A stretch of 64,000 nt of DNA from Pseudomonas sp. R-28-1W-6 (GTDB lineage: Bacteria > Pseudomonadota > Gammaproteobacteria > Pseudomonadales > Pseudomonadaceae): the NCBI RefSeq assembly GCF_009799925.1, contig NZ_WELK01000001.1:434001-498000 (forward strand), read 5' to 3'. A program made the translations under genes and the position numbers. Every line of letters begins with the position of its first letter. Within the stretch, counting starts at the first letter, position 1. A model generated the notes under the pieces. That model made no database searches, was not told the origin of the DNA, and worked only from the letters and a program-made list of their open reading frames with translations. Below, one piece after another: positions 5,753-37,031 of the stretch.

Positions 5753-7107
5753 TTCTTGGTCGGACGCTTCCAGCCTTCGATATTGCGCTGCTTGGCCCGG
5801 CCCACGGCCAGGGTCTTGGCCGGTACGTCCTGGGTCACGGTCGAGCCGGCACCGGTGGTGGCGCCATCGCCCAGGGTCAGCGGTGCCACCAGGGAGCTGT
5901 TGGAGCCGATAAATACGTCCTCGCCCAGCACGGTGCGGAACTTGTTGGCGCCATCGTAGTTGCAGGTGATGGTGCCGGCGCCGATGTTGGTGCGCGCGCC
6001 GATCTCGGCATCGCCCAGGTAGCTCAGGTGGCCGGCCTTGGCGCCCGCTCCCAGCACCGCATTCTTCAGCTCGACGAAGTTGCCGACATGGGCCTTGGCG
6101 CCCAGCCTGGCCCCCGGGCGCAGGCGGGCGAACGGGCCGCAGTCGGCGCCCTCGCCCAGCTCGGCACCTTCCAGGTGGCTGTTGGCCTTGACGATGGCGC
6201 CGCGACGCAGGGTGCTGTTGTTGATCACGCAGTTGGGGCCGATCTGTACGCCGTCCTCGATCACCACCCGGCCTTCGAGGATCACGTTCACATCGATCAG
6301 CACGTCGCGGCCGACCGTCACTTCGCCACGCAGGTCGAAGCGGTCCGGGTCGAGCAGGGTCACGCCCTGGGCCATCAGGCGCCGGGCGGCGCGCTGCTGG
6401 TAATGGCGCTCCAGCTGGGACAGCTGCAGGCGGTCATTGGCGCCCTGCACTTCCATGGCATCCTGCGGCTGCTCGGTGGCCACCACCAGGCCGTCGGCCA
6501 CCGCCATGGCGATCACGTCGGTGAGGTAGTACTCGCCCTGGGCGTTGTGGTTGGACAGGCGGCCCAGCCAGTCGGCCAGGCGCTTGCCGGGTACGGCGAG
6601 GATGCCGGTGTTACCTTCCTTGATCGCCCGCTGCTCGGCGCTGGCGTCCTTCTGCTCGACGATGGCCTGCACCACGCCGGCGGCGTTGCGCAGGATACGG
6701 CCGTAGCCGGTCGGGTCGTCCAGCCGCACGGTCAGCAGCGCCAGTTGCTCGGGGCCGACCTGCTGCAGCAGACGCTGCAGGGTTTCCGCTTCGATCAGCG
6801 GCACATCGCCGTAGAGGATCAGCACCCGCTCGGCATCGATGAACGGCAGGGCCTGGGCCACGGCATGGCCGGTACCCAGCTGCTCGGCCTGCAAGACGAA
6901 ATTCAGGTCGGGGGCCGCCAGTCGCTCCTGCACCACCTCGGCGCCATGGCCGATCACCACATGGATGCGCTGCGGCTGCAACTGCCGGGCGCAATCGATG
7001 ACATGGCCGAGCATGGACTTGCCGGCCACCGGGTGCAGTACCTTCGGCAACGCCGAACGCATGCGGGTGCCCTGGCCGGCGGCGAGGATGACGATTTCAA
7101 GCGACAT
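5749..7107 (-). CDS. glmU: Bifunctional N-acetylglucosamine-1-phosphate uridyltransferase/glucosamine-1-phosphate acetyltransferase
   Basis: Performs the last two steps of UDP-GlcNAc synthesis: acetylation of GlcN-1-P, then uridylylation. The 452-aa protein starts [16 protein letters not shown], the nucleotidyltransferase signature; a farther upstream ATG would add 31 unconserved residues. The N-terminal pyrophosphorylase domain (about 1-228, with YGDVPL) is followed by a left-handed beta-helix of hexapeptide repeats holding the acetyltransferase site ([27 protein letters not shown]). glmS lies 2 kb downstream, so the pathway genes are clustered. The TAG stop is supplied by a dispersed palindromic repeat. 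Confidence 0.96.
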
Positions 7108-7185
7108 GGGGTGCGATCCTGAACTGATGCGGTCAGTCGACGGCGCTGCGTGAGCGGGACTGGCCGCGAATAAACGGCGGAAAAG

Positions 7186-7212
7186 AAAAAGGGTAGCCAA
7201 GGCTACCCTTTA
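7186..7212 (-). terminator. Terminator of the atp operon
   Basis: A perfect stem GGGTAGCC/GGCTACCC (7191-7198 and 7201-7208), extended by A-T pairs, is followed on the minus strand by TTTTTCTTTT. It lies 26 nt after the atpC stop and upstream of glmU. Confidence 0.85.
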
Positions 7213-7238
7213 TCCCAACGCTGTTGAAGCCGGTGGCC

Positions 7239-7664
7239 TTAGCCGCCGAACTTCTTGCGCAGTTGTTGCACGGTACGCAGCTGGGCTGCGACCTCGGCCA
7301 GATGGGCCGATGCGGAACCGTAGTCGAACTCCGCGCCATGCTGGTGCAGGGCCTTTTCGGCGGCCTTGAGGGCCTCCTGGGCTGCTGCTTCGTCGATGTC
7401 GCTAGCACGAGTGACGGTGTCGGCCAGGACCTTCACCATGTTCGGCTGCACTTCGAGGAAACCACCGGAGATGTAGTACACCTCCTGCTCACCGCCCTGT
7501 TTTACCAGACGGATCGGACCCGGCTTGAGGTCGGTGATCAGCGGGGCGTGGCCCGGAGCGATACCGAGATCGCCCAGGTTGCCGTGCGCGATAACCATCT
7601 CGACCAGACCGGAAAAGATCTCCGCTTCGGCACTGACGATATCGCAATGGACAGTAATGGCCAT
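7239..7664 (-). CDS. atpC: ATP synthase F1 subunit epsilon
   Basis: Central-stalk subunit that couples rotor rotation to catalysis and inhibits ATP hydrolysis. The 141-aa protein has the N-terminal beta-sandwich ([46 protein letters not shown]) and a C-terminal helical hairpin ending QQLRKKFGG. It is the last gene of the atp operon, 40 nt after atpD, with a perfect hairpin in the gap and an intrinsic terminator downstream. Confidence 0.97.
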
Positions 7665-7681
7665 ACGCTTGCCTCAGGTGA

Positions 7682-7699
7682 GCGCCCGTTGCCGGGCGC
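7682..7699 (-). other. Intercistronic hairpin between atpD and atpC
   Basis: The mRNA sense strand reads GCGCCCG-GCAA-CGGGCGC, a perfect 7-bp stem closed by a GNRA-type tetraloop. It starts 5 nt after the atpD stop. It lacks a U-run, so it looks like an mRNA-stabilising or processing element and not a terminator. Confidence 0.6.
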
Positions 7700-7704
7700 A
7701 CGGA

Positions 7705-9973
<2,269 letters not shown>

Positions 9974-29775: not shown

Positions 29776-30957
29776 TCAGGCCTGCGCTTGCAGGCGCTCT
29801 GGCGGTACCGACAGGCTCAGGCAGTTGCGTCCTCCGGCCTTGGCGGCGTAGAGCGCCTTGTCCGAGCGGGCGATGAGCTGATCGGTACTGTCGTCCGGGC
29901 CGGGTACGCCGCACCAGAGGCCGGCGCTGAAGCTCAGGGGGATGGTGGTTCCAGCGTAGTGCGCCGGGGTCTGTGCCAGGGCTTCGCGCAGGGCATCGAC
30001 GGCGACCATGGCACCTTCGGCGCTGGTCGCCGGCAGCAACAGGAGAAACTCCTCGCCCCCGTAGCGGCCGATGCAGTCGGACTGGCGCAGGCGCTGTTGC
30101 AGGTTGCGCACGCAGTGGCAGAGCACCTCGTCGCCGGCCAGGTGGCCGTGCTGGTCGTTGATCTGCTTGAAGTGATCGATGTCGATCATGGCGATGGCCA
30201 GCGTGCTGCCGCAACGGCGGGCGCGCTCCAGCTCCTCGGTGAGCTGTTCGAGGATGGCGCGGCGGTTGAGGATACCGGTGAGCACATCCTGGCGGGCCAT
30301 CTGCCGCAGGCGCGATTCGCTGCGTTCATTCGACAACAGCACCAGGCCCAGGGAGTACATCATCACGGTGACCGTGCCGATGCTGACGGAAATGGTCTGC
30401 TTCAGGTTGCTGACGTCGTACTGCATTTCCGTGGCGCCTCCCGCCAGGATGGCGATGATCCGCAGGGTCAGGCCGATCAGGCTGATGCCGCCGCCAATCA
30501 TCAGCAACATGTAGGAGCGGCCGGTCGAGCGGGCATGTCGGTAGGCCCAGTAGACGAGCAGCAGGCATTGCCCGGTGAGCACGCCCGAGGCGGCCAGCAT
30601 GCGCGGCTCGCGGGTGTCGATCAGCGTGGCCATCAGCAGCGCCATGAGCGCAGGCAGGCTGGCGATCAGCGGCCAGGGCACACGCAGTTCACGGATGCGG
30701 AAGATGCCGGCGGTGTACAGCGCCAGGGCCACGGACAGCAACAGATTGGCCAAGCCATAGGTGAGCCACAGTGCGGCCTGCCCGTAGAGGGTGTAGCAGA
30801 CATAGGCCAGGGCATGGGCGAGCAGGCCGCAGCCGGTGGTGAACAGGCCATCGCGTTTGTTCAGCTGCCCGACCAGGATCAGGCAGAACGCCATGATCGT
30901 GGCGACCAGGGCTACCGAGGCGAACAGGGTCGGGGTGTGGGCGATCATGCTGGTCAA
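29776..30957 (-). CDS. Membrane-bound diguanylate cyclase (GGDEF)
   Basis: Synthesises cyclic di-GMP. The 393-aa protein has about six membrane helices in the first 200 residues forming a sensor region, then a GGDEF domain starting RQDVLTGILNRRAILEQL. The active-site loop is GGEEF, an active variant. The autoinhibitory I-site RQSD lies five residues before it, so product feedback is expected. No EAL domain is present. It is convergent with gyrB and downstream of the lipid operon, separated by a terminator. A second ATG three codons in is an alternative start. Confidence 0.9.
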   Translation of the reverse strand: MTSMIAHTPTLFASVALVATIMAFCLILVGQLNKRDGLFTTGCGLLAHALAYVCYTLYGQAALWLTYGLANLLLSVALALYTAGIFRIRELRVPWPLIASLPALMALLMATLIDTREPRMLAASGVLTGQCLLLVYWAYRHARSTGRSYMLLMIGGGISLIGLTLRIIAILAGGATEMQYDVSNLKQTISVSIGTVTVMMYSLGLVLLSNERSESRLRQMARQDVLTGILNRRAILEQLTEELERARRCGSTLAIAMIDIDHFKQINDQHGHLAGDEVLCHCVRNLQQRLRQSDCIGRYGGEEFLLLLPATSAEGAMVAVDALREALAQTPAHYAGTTIPLSFSAGLWCGVPGPDDSTDQLIARSDKALYAAKAGGRNCLSLSVPPERLQAQA

Positions 30958-31094: not shown

Positions 31095-31122
31095 AAAAAA
31101 CCCGGCAGGCGCCGGGTTTTTT
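31095..31122 (-). terminator. Terminator after the lipid operon
   Basis: Stem CCCGGC/GCCGGG (31101-31106 and 31111-31116) is flanked by six A and six T residues, so it works in either direction. It lies 12 nt after the stop of the CdsA-like gene. Confidence 0.85.
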
Positions 31123-31134
31123 CTCAGCTGTGAT

Positions 31135-32067
31135 TCACGCCCACCAGTAGCGCACCACATGGAAGAAGATCGGCGCAGCGAAGCACACCGAGTCGAGGCG
31201 GTCGAGCATGCCGCCGTGGCCTTCGATCATATGGCCCCAGTCCTTGACGCCGCGGTCGCGCTTGATCGCCGACATCACCAGGCCGCCGGCAAAGCCCAGC
31301 AGGTTGACCAGCAGGGCCAGCGCGGCGGCCTGCCAGAAGCCGAACGGGGTGATCCAGCACAGCAGCGCGCCCACCAGGGTGGCCAGGGCCACGCCACCGA
31401 CGAAGCCTTCGACGGTCTTCGACGGCGACAGCAGCGGGGCGATCTTGTGCTGGCCGAACAGTTTGCCGCAGACGTACTGCAGCACGTCGGACAGCTGCAC
31501 GACTATCACCAGCCAGGCGATCAGCAGCAGGTTGCGCCCCTCGTAGCCGGGGATATCCAGGGTCAGCAGGGCCGGCACCGCGGAGATGCAGTACACCGCG
31601 ATCATCAGCCCCCACTGCACCTTTGACGCACGTTCGAGGAAGCGCGTGGTATCGCCGCCGAGGGAGGCGAGGATCGGCAGGAGGAGGAACAGGTAGACCG
31701 GGATGAAGATGCTGAACATGCCATACCAGTCGATGCCGATCAGCAGGTACTGCACCGGCAAGGCGAAGTAGAAGGCGGCGACCAGGGCCGGGTAGTCGCT
31801 GCGCCGGGTCGGCGTGAGGGTCATGAACTCGCGCAGGGCGTAGAACGACACGCCGTAGAACAGCACGATTACCCCGGTCTTGCCGAATAGGAAGGCGATG
31901 CCGATCACCAGCACCATCACCCACCAGGCATTGATGCGCGCATTGAGGTTGTCGATCACCGCATTGGGCGCATCACCGGAGCGGCGCTTGAGGATGAAGC
32001 CGACCAGCGAGGCCAGCAGCAGTACGGCACCGATGCCGACGAACAACAGCAGGGTATTGCGATCCAT
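31135..32067 (-). CDS. CdsA-like phosphatidate cytidylyltransferase (lipid operon)
   Basis: Predicted to make CDP-diacylglycerol or a related CDP-lipid from CTP and phosphatidate. The 310-aa protein has about eight membrane helices and the C-terminal CDP-DAG synthase signature (SAIKRDRGVKDWGHMIEGHG, then GMLDRLDS), plus SPSKTVEGFVGG. Start MDRNTLLLFVGIG is chosen because it lies 1 nt after the upstream stop. It is the last gene of a six-gene operon resembling E. coli ynbABCD (YnbB equivalent) and P. aeruginosa PA2536-PA2541. It is presumably not the essential housekeeping CdsA. Confidence 0.88.
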   Translation of the reverse strand: MDRNTLLLFVGIGAVLLLASLVGFILKRRSGDAPNAVIDNLNARINAWWVMVLVIGIAFLFGKTGVIVLFYGVSFYALREFMTLTPTRRSDYPALVAAFYFALPVQYLLIGIDWYGMFSIFIPVYLFLLLPILASLGGDTTRFLERASKVQWGLMIAVYCISAVPALLTLDIPGYEGRNLLLIAWLVIVVQLSDVLQYVCGKLFGQHKIAPLLSPSKTVEGFVGGVALATLVGALLCWITPFGFWQAAALALLVNLLGFAGGLVMSAIKRDRGVKDWGHMIEGHGGMLDRLDSVCFAAPIFFHVVRYWWA

Positions 32068-32068
32068 C

Positions 32069-32698
32069 TCAGGCCTCCTCGGGCGCGAGTGCCAGCAGGG
32101 CGTTACGCGCACGTTCGAGGAACGCCGCCTTGTCTTCGTCGGCCAGGCGCTCCAGGGGCGCGCCAAAGCTCAGGGTGCACAGCAGCGGCAGCGGCAGCGC
32201 GCGGCCCTTGGGCATGACCCGGTTGAGGTTGGCGATCCACACCGGAACCAGCTCGACCTGCGGACGGGCCATGGCCAGGTGGAACAGGCCGCTCTTGAAC
32301 GGCAGCAGGGGCTCGTCGCCGAGGTTGCGCGTGCCTTCGGGGAAGAGGATCAGCGAGTCGCCATTGTCCAGGGCATCGAGCATGGGTTGCAGCGGGTTGC
32401 TCTCGGGGCTGCTGCGCTCGCGGTCGATCAGCACGCCGTTGAACACTTCGTTGATCACGTAGCGGCGCAGGCTGTCGCGCTGCCAGTAATCGGCGCCGGC
32501 CACCGGGCGGGTGCTGCGGCGCAGCTCGTCGGGCAGCGAGGCCCACAGCAGGACGAAGTCGCCGTGGCTGCTGTGGTTGGCGTAGTACAGGCGCTGTACC
32601 GGTTGCGCGGTGCAACCCAGCCACAGCGCGCGGGCGCCGGTGAGCAGGCGCGCCGCCGAGGTGATGGCAAAGGCAATCAATGAAGCAAGCATGGACAA
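32069..32698 (-). CDS. PlsC-type acyltransferase (lipid operon)
   Basis: Predicted 1-acylglycerol-3-phosphate acyltransferase family member. The 209-aa protein has the catalytic HX4D motif NHSSHGD and the phosphate-binding motif FPEGTRN, with one N-terminal hydrophobic segment. It is shorter than the separate PlsC-like protein at 37112-37885 and only distantly similar. Within the operon it could supply an acylated precursor to the CdsA-like enzyme, whose start lies 1 nt downstream. An internal ATG two codons in is an alternative start. Confidence 0.85.
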   Translation of the reverse strand: MSMLASLIAFAITSAARLLTGARALWLGCTAQPVQRLYYANHSSHGDFVLLWASLPDELRRSTRPVAGADYWQRDSLRRYVINEVFNGVLIDRERSSPESNPLQPMLDALDNGDSLILFPEGTRNLGDEPLLPFKSGLFHLAMARPQVELVPVWIANLNRVMPKGRALPLPLLCTLSFGAPLERLADEDKAAFLERARNALLALAPEEA

Positions 32699-32701
32699 CT
32701 C

Positions 32702-33157
32702 CTATCCAGCGAAGGAAAACCAGGGCATGGCCAGAATGGCGGCCAGGGCCAGTAGTACTTGGGCACCCAGCCACAGCACCTGCCGGCGCAACAGGTGCAG
32801 GGCGCCGCGGCTGCGCGCGTCCCAGTCGCGCCCGCCGGCCGTGGCCGGTTGCAGGCCGAGCCCGGCCAGGGCCTGATTGAGCTGCTGGGTGCGGGCCGCC
32901 AGCTGTTCCGGCTGCCGGGCCAGGCGGGTGAACAGTTCGCCATCCAGGGCGACCCGCACGGCCCAGTACTTCTGCGCCAGGCCGAGCATCACCAGCAGGC
33001 CGCAGAGCAGTGCGCTGGCGGGGTTGGGTTTGCCGCCGAGCAAGGGGGCGAGGCCGACGGCCAGGGCCAGCAGGGTCAGTCCACCGGACAGCCGGTCGAG
33101 CTGGCGCCCGCGGCGCAGCAGGCTGGCGACCAGCTGCAGTTGCATCTCAGAGGCCAT
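32702..33157 (-). CDS. Uncharacterised membrane protein of the lipid operon (151 aa)
   Basis: No family recognised. It has two N-terminal hydrophobic stretches (LSGGLTLLALAVGLAPLL and ALLCGLLVMLGLAQKYWAV), a soluble Gln/Leu-rich middle (FTRLARQPEQLAARTQQLNQ) that may be helical, and a C-terminal membrane segment (VLWLGAQVLLALAAILAMPWF). The chosen ATG has GGAGG six bases upstream and overlaps the previous gene by 11 nt; another ATG lies four codons in. Conserved placement between acyltransferase and phosphatase genes suggests a scaffolding or accessory role (inference). Confidence 0.7.
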   Translation of the reverse strand: MASEMQLQLVASLLRRGRQLDRLSGGLTLLALAVGLAPLLGGKPNPASALLCGLLVMLGLAQKYWAVRVALDGELFTRLARQPEQLAARTQQLNQALAGLGLQPATAGGRDWDARSRGALHLLRRQVLWLGAQVLLALAAILAMPWFSFAG

Positions 33158-34505
33158 GGGCGACCTCCAGCACGGGCTTTTCGGCCGTTCGTGGCAGGCG
33201 TTGCATGTCGCGCAGGGCCTGTTGCTGGGCGTGGCCGAGGACGATCCGGGGCCTGGCCTGGCGGATTCGCTGCAGCGCCGCCGGGACATCCTGGCAGTGG
33301 CCATGGTGCAGCAGCCAGGCCGCCACGGCGGTGGCGCTGCGCGAGTAACCGAGGGCGCAGCAGACCAGCAGTGGCCCGTGCCGACGCAGGTCCTCGACGG
33401 CTTCGGCCGCCTGCAGGCAGGCCTCGGGCGTGAGGGCGCAGAGGTCGAGCCAGGGCAGCGCGCGGTAGGCCTTGCCCTGGGGCTCGAGCGGCAGCTCGGC
33501 GCACAGGTCGAGCAGCGCGGCGAACGGCTGGACCTGCCCTGCCCCAGGCAAGCGTCCGAGCCAGATGCCCTCGACTATCTGATCCGCCTGCGGCTGGCGC
33601 CGGGTCCACAGCCGCGAGTTGAGCCAGGCTGCGGCCAGGTAGGGGGCGAACAACCACTGCGCCGCATGGCTCAGGCGCCCATTGGCCTGCTTCTGGAAGC
33701 CCTTGGCGCCGAAGCAGGCGTAGTTCAGCGCCACCAGCAGCAGCGCCAGGGCCGGCCACAGCAGCCACAGCCAGGCGCCGCCCAGGTTGAGCGCCAGGGT
33801 CATGCACAGCGCCGCGGCGAAGCCGTAGCCCAGGGCCAGCTGCCAGCGCCGGGCTTCGCGGGCCAGGCTGGCCTGCTGCAGCGGACTGCGCCCGGCCAGC
33901 GGCCACAGCCACACGCACAGCCAGCCGGCCAGGGCGCCGGTGGGCACATCGATGAAGTGGTGCTGCCAGGTGGTCAGCACCGACAGGCCGATCAGCGCCA
34001 TCCAGCCGTGCAGCAGGCCACGCAGCAGCACGCCACGGGTATGCCGGGCGAACATCGTCCAGATGATCACCAGCAGGGCGATATGCAGCGAAGGCGCCTG
34101 GTTGAAGGGTTTGTCGAAGCCCATCAGCACGTCGAACATCCAGCCGAACACCCCGCTCAGTTCCGGCCGTTCGACGGTGAAACGCAGCGGCCAGAGCAGG
34201 AAGCCGGCGACGCAGAGGATCTGTGCACTGAGCAGGCGCAGGGCGTGCCGGTCCATTTCCCGGCGGCTGGCCGGGAGCAGGAAGGACAGGCCGTAGAGCA
34301 GGTCGATCGACCAGTAGGGCACGATGCTCCAGGGCCACAGCGGTATCGCGCTTTCCCAGGCGAACACCAGGCTGCCGACATCCTCGCGCCGCACGGTCAG
34401 CCAGTTGGCGAAGCCGTAGCTGGCGAAGAACAGCGGGCCGAGCAGCAGCAGCCAGAGCCCCCCGCGTTTCCACAGCCCGGTTTCGCGGGGCGGGTGGGCG
34501 TCCAT
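33147..34505 (-). CDS. PAP2-type and dual-specificity phosphatase fusion (YnbD-like)
   Basis: A 452-aa protein. The N-terminal half is a membrane PAP2/inositol phosphorylceramide synthase-like domain with PSLHIALL and GLSVLTTWQHHFIDVPTGALAG (the S-x-H-x-D pattern of lipid phosphatases). The C-terminal half is a cytosolic dual-specificity phosphatase with the P-loop CALGYSRSAT. The usual His before the catalytic Cys is Cys here (VCCALGYSRS). The start overlaps the preceding stop as TGATG. The domain pair suggests removal or transfer of a phosphate or phospho-headgroup from a lipid intermediate; the substrate is unknown. Confidence 0.85.
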   Translation of the reverse strand: MDAHPPRETGLWKRGGLWLLLLGPLFFASYGFANWLTVRREDVGSLVFAWESAIPLWPWSIVPYWSIDLLYGLSFLLPASRREMDRHALRLLSAQILCVAGFLLWPLRFTVERPELSGVFGWMFDVLMGFDKPFNQAPSLHIALLVIIWTMFARHTRGVLLRGLLHGWMALIGLSVLTTWQHHFIDVPTGALAGWLCVWLWPLAGRSPLQQASLAREARRWQLALGYGFAAALCMTLALNLGGAWLWLLWPALALLLVALNYACFGAKGFQKQANGRLSHAAQWLFAPYLAAAWLNSRLWTRRQPQADQIVEGIWLGRLPGAGQVQPFAALLDLCAELPLEPQGKAYRALPWLDLCALTPEACLQAAEAVEDLRRHGPLLVCCALGYSRSATAVAAWLLHHGHCQDVPAALQRIRQARPRIVLGHAQQQALRDMQRLPRTAEKPVLEVAHGL

Positions 34506-36259
34506 CAGGACACCCGCTGGGCCAGGGATACGCTGAAGATGCCCCACTGGTCGATGCGCTGGGTCAGCTTGCGGAAACCGGCGGCCTCCACCAGTTGGTC
34601 CATCTCCGCCTGGCTGCGCCGGCGCATGACCCAGGGCTGGCCGTCGCGGTGGCTGGTCAGGGCGCGGGCGATCAGCTCCAGCTGCGGGTGCCAGGGCTGG
34701 CCGGTGTAGACCAGATAGCCGCCCTCCTCGACCGCCGCCGCCAGGCCGGCCAGCGAGTCGCCGACCATCTGGTTGCTGCCGAACAGTTCGTACAGGCCGG
34801 AGACCACCGCCAGCGTCGGCTTGGGATCGAGGGCGGCCAGGTCTGCCTTGTCGAAGGCATCGCCTTTGACGAAGCGGGCGATGGCGCCCAGGCCTTTCTG
34901 CTCGATCAGCGCGGCGCCGTCGCGCACGTTGATCTCGCTGTAGTCGCGCAGCAGGATCGCGTCCGGCTTGTGCTCCAGGCCTTCGAGGGATTCGAGGATG
35001 TAGCGGCCGTGGCCGGCGGCGATATCGACGATGCGCACCGCCCTGCCCGCCTCGCGCAGTTTGCCCATGGCCAGGCGCAGCAGTTCCTCGGCATGCACCT
35101 TGCGCTGGCGGATGCCGCGCCAGCCGATGGAGTCGAGGTAGTTCGCATCGATCAGCCGACCCAGGGCGCTGTTGCCGCTCGGGGTATTGCGGTAGACATA
35201 GTCCAGGGTGCTGCCGGAGTCGAAGCCGGTTTCGAAGCCCAGCCTGACCCCGTCGGACAGCCCGCTGCCGAGCTTGAGTCCGGCGCGGGTGGCACGCCAG
35301 TACAGGTCGCCGAGGGAATTGCGCGGCAGCGGCGCGGCCAGCTCCTCGGCTTCCGCGCAGGTGGCGCCAAGGCGGTCGGCATCCAGCAGCGTGGGGCGGT
35401 TCAGCGGTTCCTCGAAACTGCGCAGGATGAAGCGCCGCGCCCGTACCAGGGCATGGGCGCGGTCGCGCTCGCCGAGGGTATCGTGGAAGAAACCGGGGAG
35501 GATGTGCTTTTCCTTGCGCAGGCTGCCCAGGCGCTCGAAGAACTGTTCCTGCGGCTGGCGATGCACCACGAAGTCGGCCCCGGAAATCAGCAGCTGGGTG
35601 GGAATCTGGATCGCCTGGGCATCGGCGACCACGCGGTCGGCGGCTTCATACAGGCCCAGCAGCATGTTCACCGAGATCGGTCGGCTGATCAGCGGGTCGC
35701 TGTCGAACGAGGCGATGCGTGCCGGGTCATGGCTGAGGAACCTGGCCTTGACGTAGCTGTTGACGAAGAAGTTGCCGCGCCAGGCGCGCATCAGCTTCAG
35801 CCCCGGGCGGGCGAACGGCACGTAGAGCTTGACCTTGAACGCCGGCGAGGCGAGCACCAGGCAGCGGATCTTCGGCGCGTAGTCGTGGGCCCAGGTCGAC
35901 ACCAGCACGGCGCCGACGCTCTGCGCCAGCACGGCCAGGTCCGTTTCCGCGATGCCATGGCGGCTGCCGATATGCTCGATAAAGCTCTGCACGTCGCGCA
36001 CGCTGGTGGCGAAGCTCGGGCTGTCGCCGCGGGCGCCGGGGGACAGGCCGTGGCCGCGGGCATCCCAGGCGAAGAAGTCGAACTCGGGCAGATCCAGTTC
36101 GTCGACCAGGTGGGCCATGCGCCCGCCATGCTCGTGGCCGCGGTGGAACATCACCACGGCCTGGCGTGGGCCTGCAGTCGGTGTGGTGGCGGGCCAGTGG
36201 CGATAGAGCAGCTCGACGCCATCGTGGGTGGTGAAGATGTGGTTCTGAGCTTCACGCAT
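34505..36259 (-). CDS. Alpha/beta-hydrolase and SAM-methyltransferase fusion (YnbC-like)
   Basis: A 584-aa two-domain protein. Residues 1-300 form a monoacylglycerol-lipase-like hydrolase (FHRGHEHGGRMAHLVDEL, WDARGHGLSPG, nucleophile elbow AQSVGAV with Ala in place of the usual Gly, late ILPGFFHDTLGE). Residues 300-584 form a class I methyltransferase (VRIVDIAAGHGRYILESLEG, LRDYSEINV, AVVSGLYELFG). Start MREAQNHIFTTHDGVELLYRHW fits the family. It follows the CDP-alcohol transferase by 19 nt. The fusion suggests consecutive deacylation and methylation of one lipid; no substrate is known to me. Confidence 0.85.
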   Translation of the reverse strand: MREAQNHIFTTHDGVELLYRHWPATTPTAGPRQAVVMFHRGHEHGGRMAHLVDELDLPEFDFFAWDARGHGLSPGARGDSPSFATSVRDVQSFIEHIGSRHGIAETDLAVLAQSVGAVLVSTWAHDYAPKIRCLVLASPAFKVKLYVPFARPGLKLMRAWRGNFFVNSYVKARFLSHDPARIASFDSDPLISRPISVNMLLGLYEAADRVVADAQAIQIPTQLLISGADFVVHRQPQEQFFERLGSLRKEKHILPGFFHDTLGERDRAHALVRARRFILRSFEEPLNRPTLLDADRLGATCAEAEELAAPLPRNSLGDLYWRATRAGLKLGSGLSDGVRLGFETGFDSGSTLDYVYRNTPSGNSALGRLIDANYLDSIGWRGIRQRKVHAEELLRLAMGKLREAGRAVRIVDIAAGHGRYILESLEGLEHKPDAILLRDYSEINVRDGAALIEQKGLGAIARFVKGDAFDKADLAALDPKPTLAVVSGLYELFGSNQMVGDSLAGLAAAVEEGGYLVYTGQPWHPQLELIARALTSHRDGQPWVMRRRSQAEMDQLVEAAGFRKLTQRIDQWGIFSVSLAQRVS

Positions 36260-36278
36260 CGAAATATCCTTATTCCGA

Positions 36279-36893
36279 TCAGGAGGGTTGTGTCGCCTCG
36301 GCCAGACCTTGGCGCACGCGGTTGAACAGGGTGTACAGCAGCAGGGCCAGGATCACCGCGAGCAGCCCGTTTATCCAAGACGCCGCCAGCAGCCCGCACG
36401 CCACACCGGCACCCAGCACGCCGAAGCAGAAGGCGCGGTCGCTCTTGCCCATGGGCCCGTCGTAGCGCCGCGAGGCACCGACCATCGGCCCGAGCACGCC
36501 GGCGTATTCGCTGATCAGCGCAAACAGCACCACCAGCACCACCAGCAGCGGCGAGACGCCGGGCAGCAGGGCGAACGGCAGGTACAGGGCGCTGTCGGCG
36601 ATCACGTCGCACAATTCGTTGAGGTAGGCGCCGAGCCTGGACTGCTGGCCGAACTCGCGGGCGAGCATGCCGTCCACGGCATTCAGCGCCATGCGCAGGA
36701 GCATCCACAGCGGGATCAGGGCGAACAGCCAGACATGGCCGGGCAGCAGGGCGAGGAGGCCGCCGAGCAGCAGCGAGACGATGCCGGCGGCCAGGGTCAC
36801 CTGGTTGGCGGTGACGCCACGGTCGAACAGGCGTTGCACGCCGGGCCGCAGCAGATTCTGGAAACGCGGTTTGAGCTGATAGATCGACAGCAT
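36279..36893 (-). CDS. CDP-alcohol phosphatidyltransferase family protein (YnbA-like)
   Basis: Predicted to exchange CMP on a CDP-lipid for an alcohol headgroup. The 204-aa protein has about six membrane helices and the family motif as NAVDGMLAR-x8-GAYLNELCDVIAD. The canonical form is DxxDGxxAR-x8-GxxxDxxxD, so the first and third Asp are both Asn here. The remaining catalytic spacing is intact. From memory the E. coli YnbA motif looks similar, which would make this a subfamily feature. It is the first gene of the lipid operon. Confidence 0.85.
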   Translation of the reverse strand: MLSIYQLKPRFQNLLRPGVQRLFDRGVTANQVTLAAGIVSLLLGGLLALLPGHVWLFALIPLWMLLRMALNAVDGMLAREFGQQSRLGAYLNELCDVIADSALYLPFALLPGVSPLLVVLVVLFALISEYAGVLGPMVGASRRYDGPMGKSDRAFCFGVLGAGVACGLLAASWINGLLAVILALLLYTLFNRVRQGLAEATQPS

Positions 36894-37031
36894 GAACGAA
36901 ATTCCTTTTTCAGCGGGGCCGGCGGCCAGCTCCTAGCTTAGCCCGGTTGCCCTGGGTTCCAGCGTGCGCAATTCATGGATTTGCCCGCCCGGCGCGGCAG
37001 GGAAAAACTTATGCCCCGCCGCAGGTTAGCC

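What the first reader, a model, noticed from the sequence alone, without database searches (positions are those of the whole stretch)
31135..36893. Six-gene phospholipid-type operon of unknown product between gyrB and the PlsC-like gene
CDP-alcohol transferase, hydrolase-methyltransferase fusion, PAP2-DSP phosphatase fusion, small membrane protein, acyltransferase and CdsA-like enzyme are packed with overlaps or gaps of 19 nt or less. It resembles ynbABCD of E. coli and PA2536-PA2541 of P. aeruginosa; I know of no established product. Together the parts could build a CDP-lipid, attach a headgroup, remove a phosphate, and deacylate or methylate the result. In P. aeruginosa this cluster lies far from the origin, so its place here between two conserved neighbours implies relocation or insertion.
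Basis: partly seen in the sequence, partly recalled or inferred. Interest (0 to 1): 0.65.

Follow-up and report, generated by a model that had tools for sequence, protein, structure and literature searches.

The report
Arc1 phospholipid operon with altered transferase
This six-gene bacterial operon is a relative of the published Arc1 cluster that helps Pseudomonas survive lipid-cutting toxins from rival bacteria; its lipid product is still unknown, and its key transferase carries an unusual, strictly conserved active site.

Summary
The six genes are real, at the stated coordinates and tightly packed. Gene content and order match arc1A-F (PA2541-36), published in 2022 as Gac/Rsm-induced defence against type VI secretion attack (PMC8926400); in 2025 arc1A was tied to resistance to lipase effectors (PMC12663445). 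I found no published product in the papers I could search. Three results go further. (1) Gene A and its relatives, E. coli YnbA included, have Asn at two of the four metal-binding Asp places of CDP-alcohol phosphotransferases: 130 of 131 loci, against 0 of 71 other PF01066 loci. (2) B-C-D is a dispensable cassette: four genomes with A-E-F show no B or C anywhere. (3) Inositol lipid is unlikely: the inositol-phosphate Arg is hydrophobic in 127 of 127 relatives, and no inositol-phosphate synthase was found. The gyrB-plsC site is shared by a Pseudomonas clade. Most likely: a dedicated, inducible phospholipid assembly line (CDP-diacylglycerol, phosphatidyl-X, tailoring) that blunts phospholipase damage. 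X is unknown.

The parts
36279..36893 (-). Gene A (arc1A/ynbA-like): CDP-alcohol phosphotransferase family, 204 aa, with Asn at the 1st and 3rd Asp positions of the signature (N71, D74, N92, D96)
   Evidence: PF01066; motif survey; 127 of 127 rows identical at N71, D74, N92, E93, D96, D100
34505..36259 (-). Gene B (ynbC-like): monoacylglycerol-lipase-like alpha/beta hydrolase (PF12146) fused to Methyltransf_20 (PF12147), 584 aa
   Evidence: Pfam; all 14 solved-structure matches are monoglyceride lipases, hydrolase half only; conserved QSVGAV and DIAAGHGRY stretches
33147..34505 (-). Gene C (ynbD-like): membrane PAP2-type part (PSLH, QHHxxD) plus dual-specificity phosphatase part (CALGYSR), 452 aa
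   Evidence: Pfam; invariant columns; predicted model matches DSP phosphatases including PTPMT1, Z 16.0, rmsd 2.8, 137 aligned
32702..33157 (-). Gene D: small helical protein, probably in the membrane (inference), 151 aa, no known family
   Evidence: No Pfam or NCBIfam match; among 18 relatives only chance-level Pfam matches, best E 0.015; model all helix, mean pLDDT 79.4; no Foldseek match at E<=0.001
32069..32692 (-). Gene E: PlsC-like acyltransferase, 207 aa, HX4D and FPEGTR present
   Evidence: PF01553; alignment
31135..32067 (-). Gene F (ynbB-like): CdsA paralogue, 310 aa, CDP-diacylglycerol synthase signature intact (signature from recall)
   Evidence: PF01148 240.7 bits; alignment
31095..31122 (-). 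Strong intrinsic-terminator sequence after gene F
   Evidence: Read in the sequence printed; not listed
36897..36912 (-). Ribosome-binding GGA in the loop of a 5-pair hairpin (one G-T pair): possible RsmA site of gene A
   Evidence: of 77 distinct leaders with GGA, 42% have stems of 4 or more against 15% with shuffled flanks; leaders of B and E are enriched too

Best explanation
The operon is the Arc1 cluster of this Pseudomonas: an inducible, dedicated phospholipid assembly line used when neighbours inject phospholipases. Proposed flow: E acylates a lysophosphatidic acid to phosphatidic acid; F activates it with CTP to CDP-diacylglycerol; A moves the phosphatidyl group onto an acceptor X, probably not inositol phosphate, with an altered metal site. 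That gives a core lipid at which some bacteria stop. B (lipase-like hydrolase plus methyltransferase) and C (membrane phosphatase or phosphotransferase plus DSP phosphatase), helped by D, then trim, methylate and dephosphorylate it. The resulting lipid, or the removal of lysolipids along the way, protects the membrane. Shown here: gene content, conserved catalytic residues, the double Asn change, dispensability of B and C. Published for P. aeruginosa: Gac/Rsm induction and defence. Inferred: the order of steps, each substrate, the product, and that this genome uses it the same way.
For: Published: PA2541-36 = arc1A-F, Gac/Rsm-controlled, defensive against B. thailandensis T6SS, five of six genes predicted lipid enzymes (PMC8926400: abstract, sections 5 and 6, and passages). 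arc1A needed for full resistance to lipase effectors TseL and Tle1 (PMC12663445, passages). The F homologue YnbB makes CDP-DAG in vitro but cannot replace CdsA for bulk lipid (PMC6362211 and the review PMC7018664, passages), as expected of a dedicated supplier. Four whole genomes with A-E-F (G012, G008, G113, G589) show no C in a profile search in which the other five genomes rang, and no B: G012 and G008 at E<=1e-50 with protein B, G113 and G589 at E<=0.001 with PF12147. All 27 genomes of 398 with B also have A; 10 of 37 with A lack B. F lies near A in 127 of 133 loci. This genome has RsmY (92.9 bits) and an Arc3A-type DUF2339 protein. Catalytic residues are conserved in A, B, C, E and F.
Against: No product is known, so the assembly-line order is inference. 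The two Asn changes could mean that A does not catalyse the usual reaction, or any. arc1 was only auxiliary to arc3 against lipases in one study; in the other, no single B. thailandensis effector mutation relieved the Arc1 defect, although one Arc1 gene passed the cut-off in the Tle3 screen and one in the ColA screen. The Rsm-type hairpin is not special to gene A, and 11 distinct leaders in other Pseudomonas have no GGA in the 32 nt before A. I did not compare with PA2536-41 by sequence; the match rests on the papers, on gene order and on named relatives such as P. protegens FD6 (L145) and P. nitroreducens (L187).
Confidence: 0.5

Rival explanations
1. Repair route: the genes recycle lysophospholipids left by phospholipases (E reacylates, B hydrolyses the rest, F and A return the backbone to ordinary phosphatidylglycerol) without any new lipid.
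For: Defence is against lipases; B is closest to monoacylglycerol lipases and E is PlsC-like; Ting et al. say four products resemble phosphatidylglycerol-synthesis enzymes.
Against: A is not PgsA-like: TIGR00560 scores 20.4 bits against a cut-off of 109.1, and the genome has two other PF01066 genes with all Asp. A methyltransferase and two phosphatase parts are not needed for reacylation. YnbB cannot support bulk lipid synthesis.
Confidence: 0.2
2. F and its partners make a pyrophosphate-linked glycolipid of the MPIase kind rather than a phosphodiester lipid.
For: YnbB overproduction raises MPIase and can restore it.
Against: Deleting ynbB did not significantly change MPIase; no glycosyltransferase family matched the six proteins; F lies near a CDP-alcohol transferase in 127 of 133 loci, which is not part of the published MPIase scheme that I saw in passages.
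Confidence: 0.08
3. A is a phosphatidylinositol-phosphate-type synthase and C its phosphatase, giving phosphatidylinositol.
For: Best NCBIfam scores of A are archaetidylinositol-phosphate synthase (66.2 bits, cut-off 180) and PIP synthase (46.6, cut-off 170); best solved relative is the M. tuberculosis enzyme; the DSP part resembles PTPMT1 among many DUSPs.
Against: The Arg of inositol-phosphate users (R94, PMC6506517, passages) is V, I, L or M in 127 of 127 rows. No inositol-phosphate synthase (PF07994) in this genome, while 5 of 14 control genomes rang, 3 of them over the cut-off.
Confidence: 0.05
4. A is a pseudoenzyme or lipid-binding scaffold that lost the usual two-metal chemistry.
For: D1 and D3 are both Asn in 130 of 131 loci; in the M. 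tuberculosis enzyme D68 and D89 both hold metal and D89 can bridge the two ions (PMC6506517).
Against: D2, D4, G, A, R and further charged residues (E93, D100, K150, D152, R153, R192) are identical in 127 of 127 rows, and A is near its CDP-DAG supplier F in 127 of 133 loci.
Confidence: 0.15

Closest known systems
arc1A-F (PA2541-PA2536), antagonism resistance cluster 1 of P. aeruginosa
   Same: Six genes, lipid-enzyme content; the Gac/Rsm small RNA RsmY is present in this genome
   Different: Chromosomal position (beside gyrB here); expression and phenotype untested here; sequence not compared directly
ynbABCD of E. coli K-12
   Same: A, F, B and C homologues at 49, 37, 58 and 42% identity; same Asn changes in YnbA
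   Different: Order A-F-B-C, no match to E or D in the 12-kb stretch; function of the operon unknown
Class I CDP-alcohol phosphotransferases (PgsA, PssA, PIP synthase)
   Same: PF01066, DG..AR core and fourth Asp
   Different: First and third Asp are Asn; further invariant residues E93, K150, D152, R153
CdsA
   Same: PF01148 and C-terminal signature
   Different: PRK11624 scores 83.3 against a cut-off of 385; the E. coli homologue does not replace CdsA

Membership tests
Arc1 (arc1A-F) | Same six gene types in the same order in one operon | tested here: met
   which P. aeruginosa gene is which is taken from PMC8926400 in part and otherwise from recall
Arc1 (arc1A-F) | Gac/Rsm control | tested here: inconclusive
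   RsmY present; GGA hairpin at the start of A, enriched in relatives but also at B and E; no expression data
Arc1 (arc1A-F) | Defence against T6SS lipase effectors | not testable with these tools
   Published for P. aeruginosa
Canonical class I CDP-alcohol phosphotransferase | D-x2-D-G-x2-A-R ... G-x3-D-x3-D with four Asp | tested here: not met
   N at positions 1 and 3; family-level PF01066 cut-off is met
Phosphatidylinositol-phosphate synthase | Score over NCBIfam cut-off and R94 equivalent | tested here: not met
   46.6 of 170 bits; V/I/L/M at that place in 127 of 127
PgsA | Score over TIGR00560 cut-off | tested here: not met
   20.4 of 109.1 bits
CdsA (PRK11624) | Score over NCBIfam cut-off | tested here: not met
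   83.3 of 385 bits; PF01148 met
Dual-specificity phosphatase (C-terminal part of C) | CX5R loop and general-acid Asp, DSP fold | tested here: met
   C383, R389, D354 invariant in 20 of 20 rows (D354 as the acid is my inference); Z 16 group
PAP2 phosphatase (N-terminal part of C) | Three PAP2 motifs, first one KX6RP | tested here: inconclusive
   PSLH and QHHxxD present, KX6RP not seen by eye; 15 of 20 members match PAP2 and 15 of 20 PAP2_3 at E<=0.01; this part barely tested by the structure search

The most novel reading that the evidence does not exclude
The A proteins form a distinct class of CDP-alcohol phosphotransferase with a rebuilt metal site (Asn for Asp at two of four places) that makes an undescribed phospholipid. 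With E and F it is a portable core module across Pseudomonadota, and the hydrolase-methyltransferase and double-phosphatase cassette is an add-on that turns the lipid into an anti-phospholipase defence.
Probability: 0.25. Interest if true: 0.75.

Novelty: new member of a known kind. Interest (0 to 1): 0.45.

Why it matters
Arc1 is a lipid-enzyme cluster with a published role in defence of bacteria against bacteria, and its product is the missing piece. The conserved double Asn change and the separable A-E-F core give direct, small experiments: which lipid appears when three genes are expressed, and which acceptor the altered transferase uses. If a new lipid comes out, the phospholipid pathways of E. 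coli and Pseudomonas gain a branch.

Tried and rejected
Inositol lipid: rejected on R94 and the missing PF07994. Recent foreign origin or a relocation private to this genome: not supported. Ordinary phosphatidylglycerol synthesis by A: NCBIfam cut-off not met. C missing from the A-B-E-F locus of G498: withdrawn as evidence of absence, since C lies about 42 kb away in that genome; the other two ABEF loci (L146, L149) were not searched beyond their stretch. Function of D from fold: Foldseek gave no match at E<=0.001, so nothing is claimed. PAP2 part of C by fold: the lists were filled by DSP phosphatases, so no conclusion. A first search with C alone in four genomes had no positive control and was replaced by the profile search. 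In the M. tuberculosis alignment R153 falls one position off R155 without a gap, so I do not claim that this phosphate-binding Arg is kept. Passages of papers that mention YnbD, ynbA or ynbC gave no product. Literature on Asn in the DxxDGxxAR signature: I saw only the search listing, no paper read.

Full report
Observation. Six intact minus-strand genes fill 31135-36893, in the order A to F from 36893 downwards, with gaps of 19, -1, -11, 9 and 1 nt. Families: A PF01066; B PF12146 plus PF12147; C DSPc with a PAP2-type front half; D none; E PF01553; F PF01148. A strong terminator sequence follows F (31122-31095, read in the output, not listed), and 218 nt separate plsC from A. GC is 64.6-72.1% and GC3 87.5-91.3% in A-F, close to plsC (68.0, 91.9), gmhB (67.0, 84.2) and glyS (69.0, 91.7), so nothing points to recent foreign DNA.

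What is already known. PA2541-PA2536 of P. aeruginosa were named arc1A-F in 2022 (PMC8926400; abstract, sections 5 and 6 in full, passages elsewhere). They are Gac/Rsm-controlled, with very low basal expression, and defend against the B. thailandensis T6SS; the authors note homology of four products to phosphatidylglycerol-synthesis enzymes, and I saw no product in what I read. In 2025 arc1A was found necessary for full resistance to the lipase effectors TseL and Tle1, with an auxiliary role beside arc3 (PMC12663445, passages). For E. coli, YnbB makes CDP-DAG and the MPIase precursor but does not replace CdsA (PMC6362211, PMC7018664, passages), and YnbD had no assigned function in 2020 (PMC7413402, passages). 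My literature searches (full text of open PubMed Central papers; several listings were capped) showed no product; most subscription papers are not held.

Altered active site. In M. tuberculosis PgsA1 the four signature Asp (D68, D71, D89, D93) form a two-metal site; D68, D71 and D89 bind Mg-1, and D89 can bridge both ions (PMC6506517, passages). In A the places of D68 and D89 are Asn (N71, N92; alignment). A pattern survey that accepted only D or N at those two places gave N..N in 130 of 131 Arc1-type loci; the exception, L268, is a lone, diverged copy with Ala at the first place. Some Arc1-type loci are the same genome fetched twice. After dropping L268, identical rows and rows of 150 aa or less, 127 of 127 rows agree at R67, M68, N71, D74, G75, A78, R79, G88, N92, E93, D96, D100, E129, R142, Y144, G146, P147, G149-A154, T188 and R192; E80 is E in 126 and D in 1. 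Such constancy argues for a working, different site rather than decay, but activity is not shown.

Modular operon. With the A profile (E<=1e-25), 37 of 398 Pseudomonadota genomes ring; with PF12147, 27 of 398. All 27 have A, and 10 have A without B. Of those ten, eight are A-E-F, one (L262) keeps only fragments of A and F, one (L268) is A alone. In six of the eight (L263-L267, L269) E is matched at only 32-39% identity and F at 42-45%, and in four of these the PlsC query hits the same acyltransferase, so it is E-like by position more than by sequence. Four genomes with A-E-F (G012, G008, G113, G589) lack C in a profile search in which the other five genomes rang, and lack B (G012 and G008 at E<=1e-50; G113 and G589 at E<=0.001). 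Over 133 loci (the window and 132 fetched; chosen by A or by B, some cut by contig ends, so proportions are biased) the content within 8.5 kb is ABCDEF 92, AEF 17, ABCEF 11, ABEF 3, ABC 2, A 2 and six single cases. D is short and diverged and can be missed. On a quick tree of 88 of 128 distinct A rows, B changes state at least 13 times, C 12, E+F 6 (SH-aLRT only, long branches present). So A-E-F behaves as a core and B-C-D as a cassette gained or lost many times. That suggests, but does not prove, that B and C act after A.

Chemistry. F carries the CDP-DAG synthase signature, E the HX4D and FPEGTR motifs, B a lipase-type serine hydrolase core and a SAM motif, C a CX5R phosphatase loop plus PSLH and QHHxxD (motif names recalled). 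Inositol phosphate is an unlikely acceptor: R94, needed by inositol-phosphate users, is V, I, L or M in 127 of 127, and PF07994 is absent here while 5 of 14 controls ring, 3 over the cut-off. The DSP half of C has the fold of lipid and protein phosphatases alike: PTPMT1 Z 16.0, rmsd 2.8, 137 aligned, tied with many DUSPs. It cannot decide the substrate.

Regulation. RsmY is present (92.9 bits, gathering score 57; two weaker places fall below it). The GGA before A sits in the loop of a short hairpin. Among 77 distinct Pseudomonas-family leaders of A with GGA, 42% have a stem of 4 or more against 15% with shuffled flanks; B 46 against 13%, E 44 against 18%, while F (16, 28), D (25, 20), GmhB (18, 22; 11 leaders) and GyrB (0, 7; 12 leaders) show no clear excess. 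PlsC, C and RecF have too few leaders to judge. Eleven distinct A leaders have no GGA in those 32 nt. This fits Rsm control here but is weak.

Position. plsC and gyrB flank the cluster in 14 of 23 same-genus loci, with one flank visible in 3 and neither in 6; in the 80 named loci, the best 80 of 582, the figures are 8, 5 and 67. The eight include P. argentinensis, P. alcaligenes, P. chengduensis and P. segetis. Of 12 gyrB regions taken from genomes without B, two (L104, L105) hold A-E-F about 8 kb from gyrB, the rest show no A-F match, and in L111 plsC and gyrB lie about 340 nt apart. So the site is a shared clade feature; direction of movement was not tested.

Verdict. A new member of the published Arc1 kind, with a separable core and an active-site variant that I did not see described (one listing only). 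The product remains the open question.

Noticed in passing
L092 5741-9184 (same-genus genome G078): Gene C is split in two pieces by an insertion with a 517-aa frame (6482-8035) that looks like an IS66-type transposase (name from recall).
   Followed up: partly
L077 9208-11361 (G679): A 717-aa frame with a signal-like start (by eye) lies between B and C of the operon in this small-genome relative.
   Followed up: no
L262 8208-8932 (G406): A and F survive only as fragments, with a stop in A: a decaying copy in a 1.9-Mb genome.
   Followed up: no
L083, L160, L163, L166, L168, L172, L173, L176, L177, L179, L184: 32 nt before gene A: These Pseudomonas leaders have no GGA before A, so Rsm control at this site looks lost or absent there.
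   Followed up: no
G498 C1:420729-421949: Gene C sits about 42 kb from A-B-E-F, so the cluster can be split.
   Followed up: no
L268 8261-8815 (G578): A lone, very diverged A homologue without the usual motif or partners.
   Followed up: no
window 29776-30957: A GGDEF diguanylate cyclase gene lies between the operon and gyrB; a GGDEF hit is also seen next to F in some relatives (L085, L089, L091, L092).
   Followed up: no
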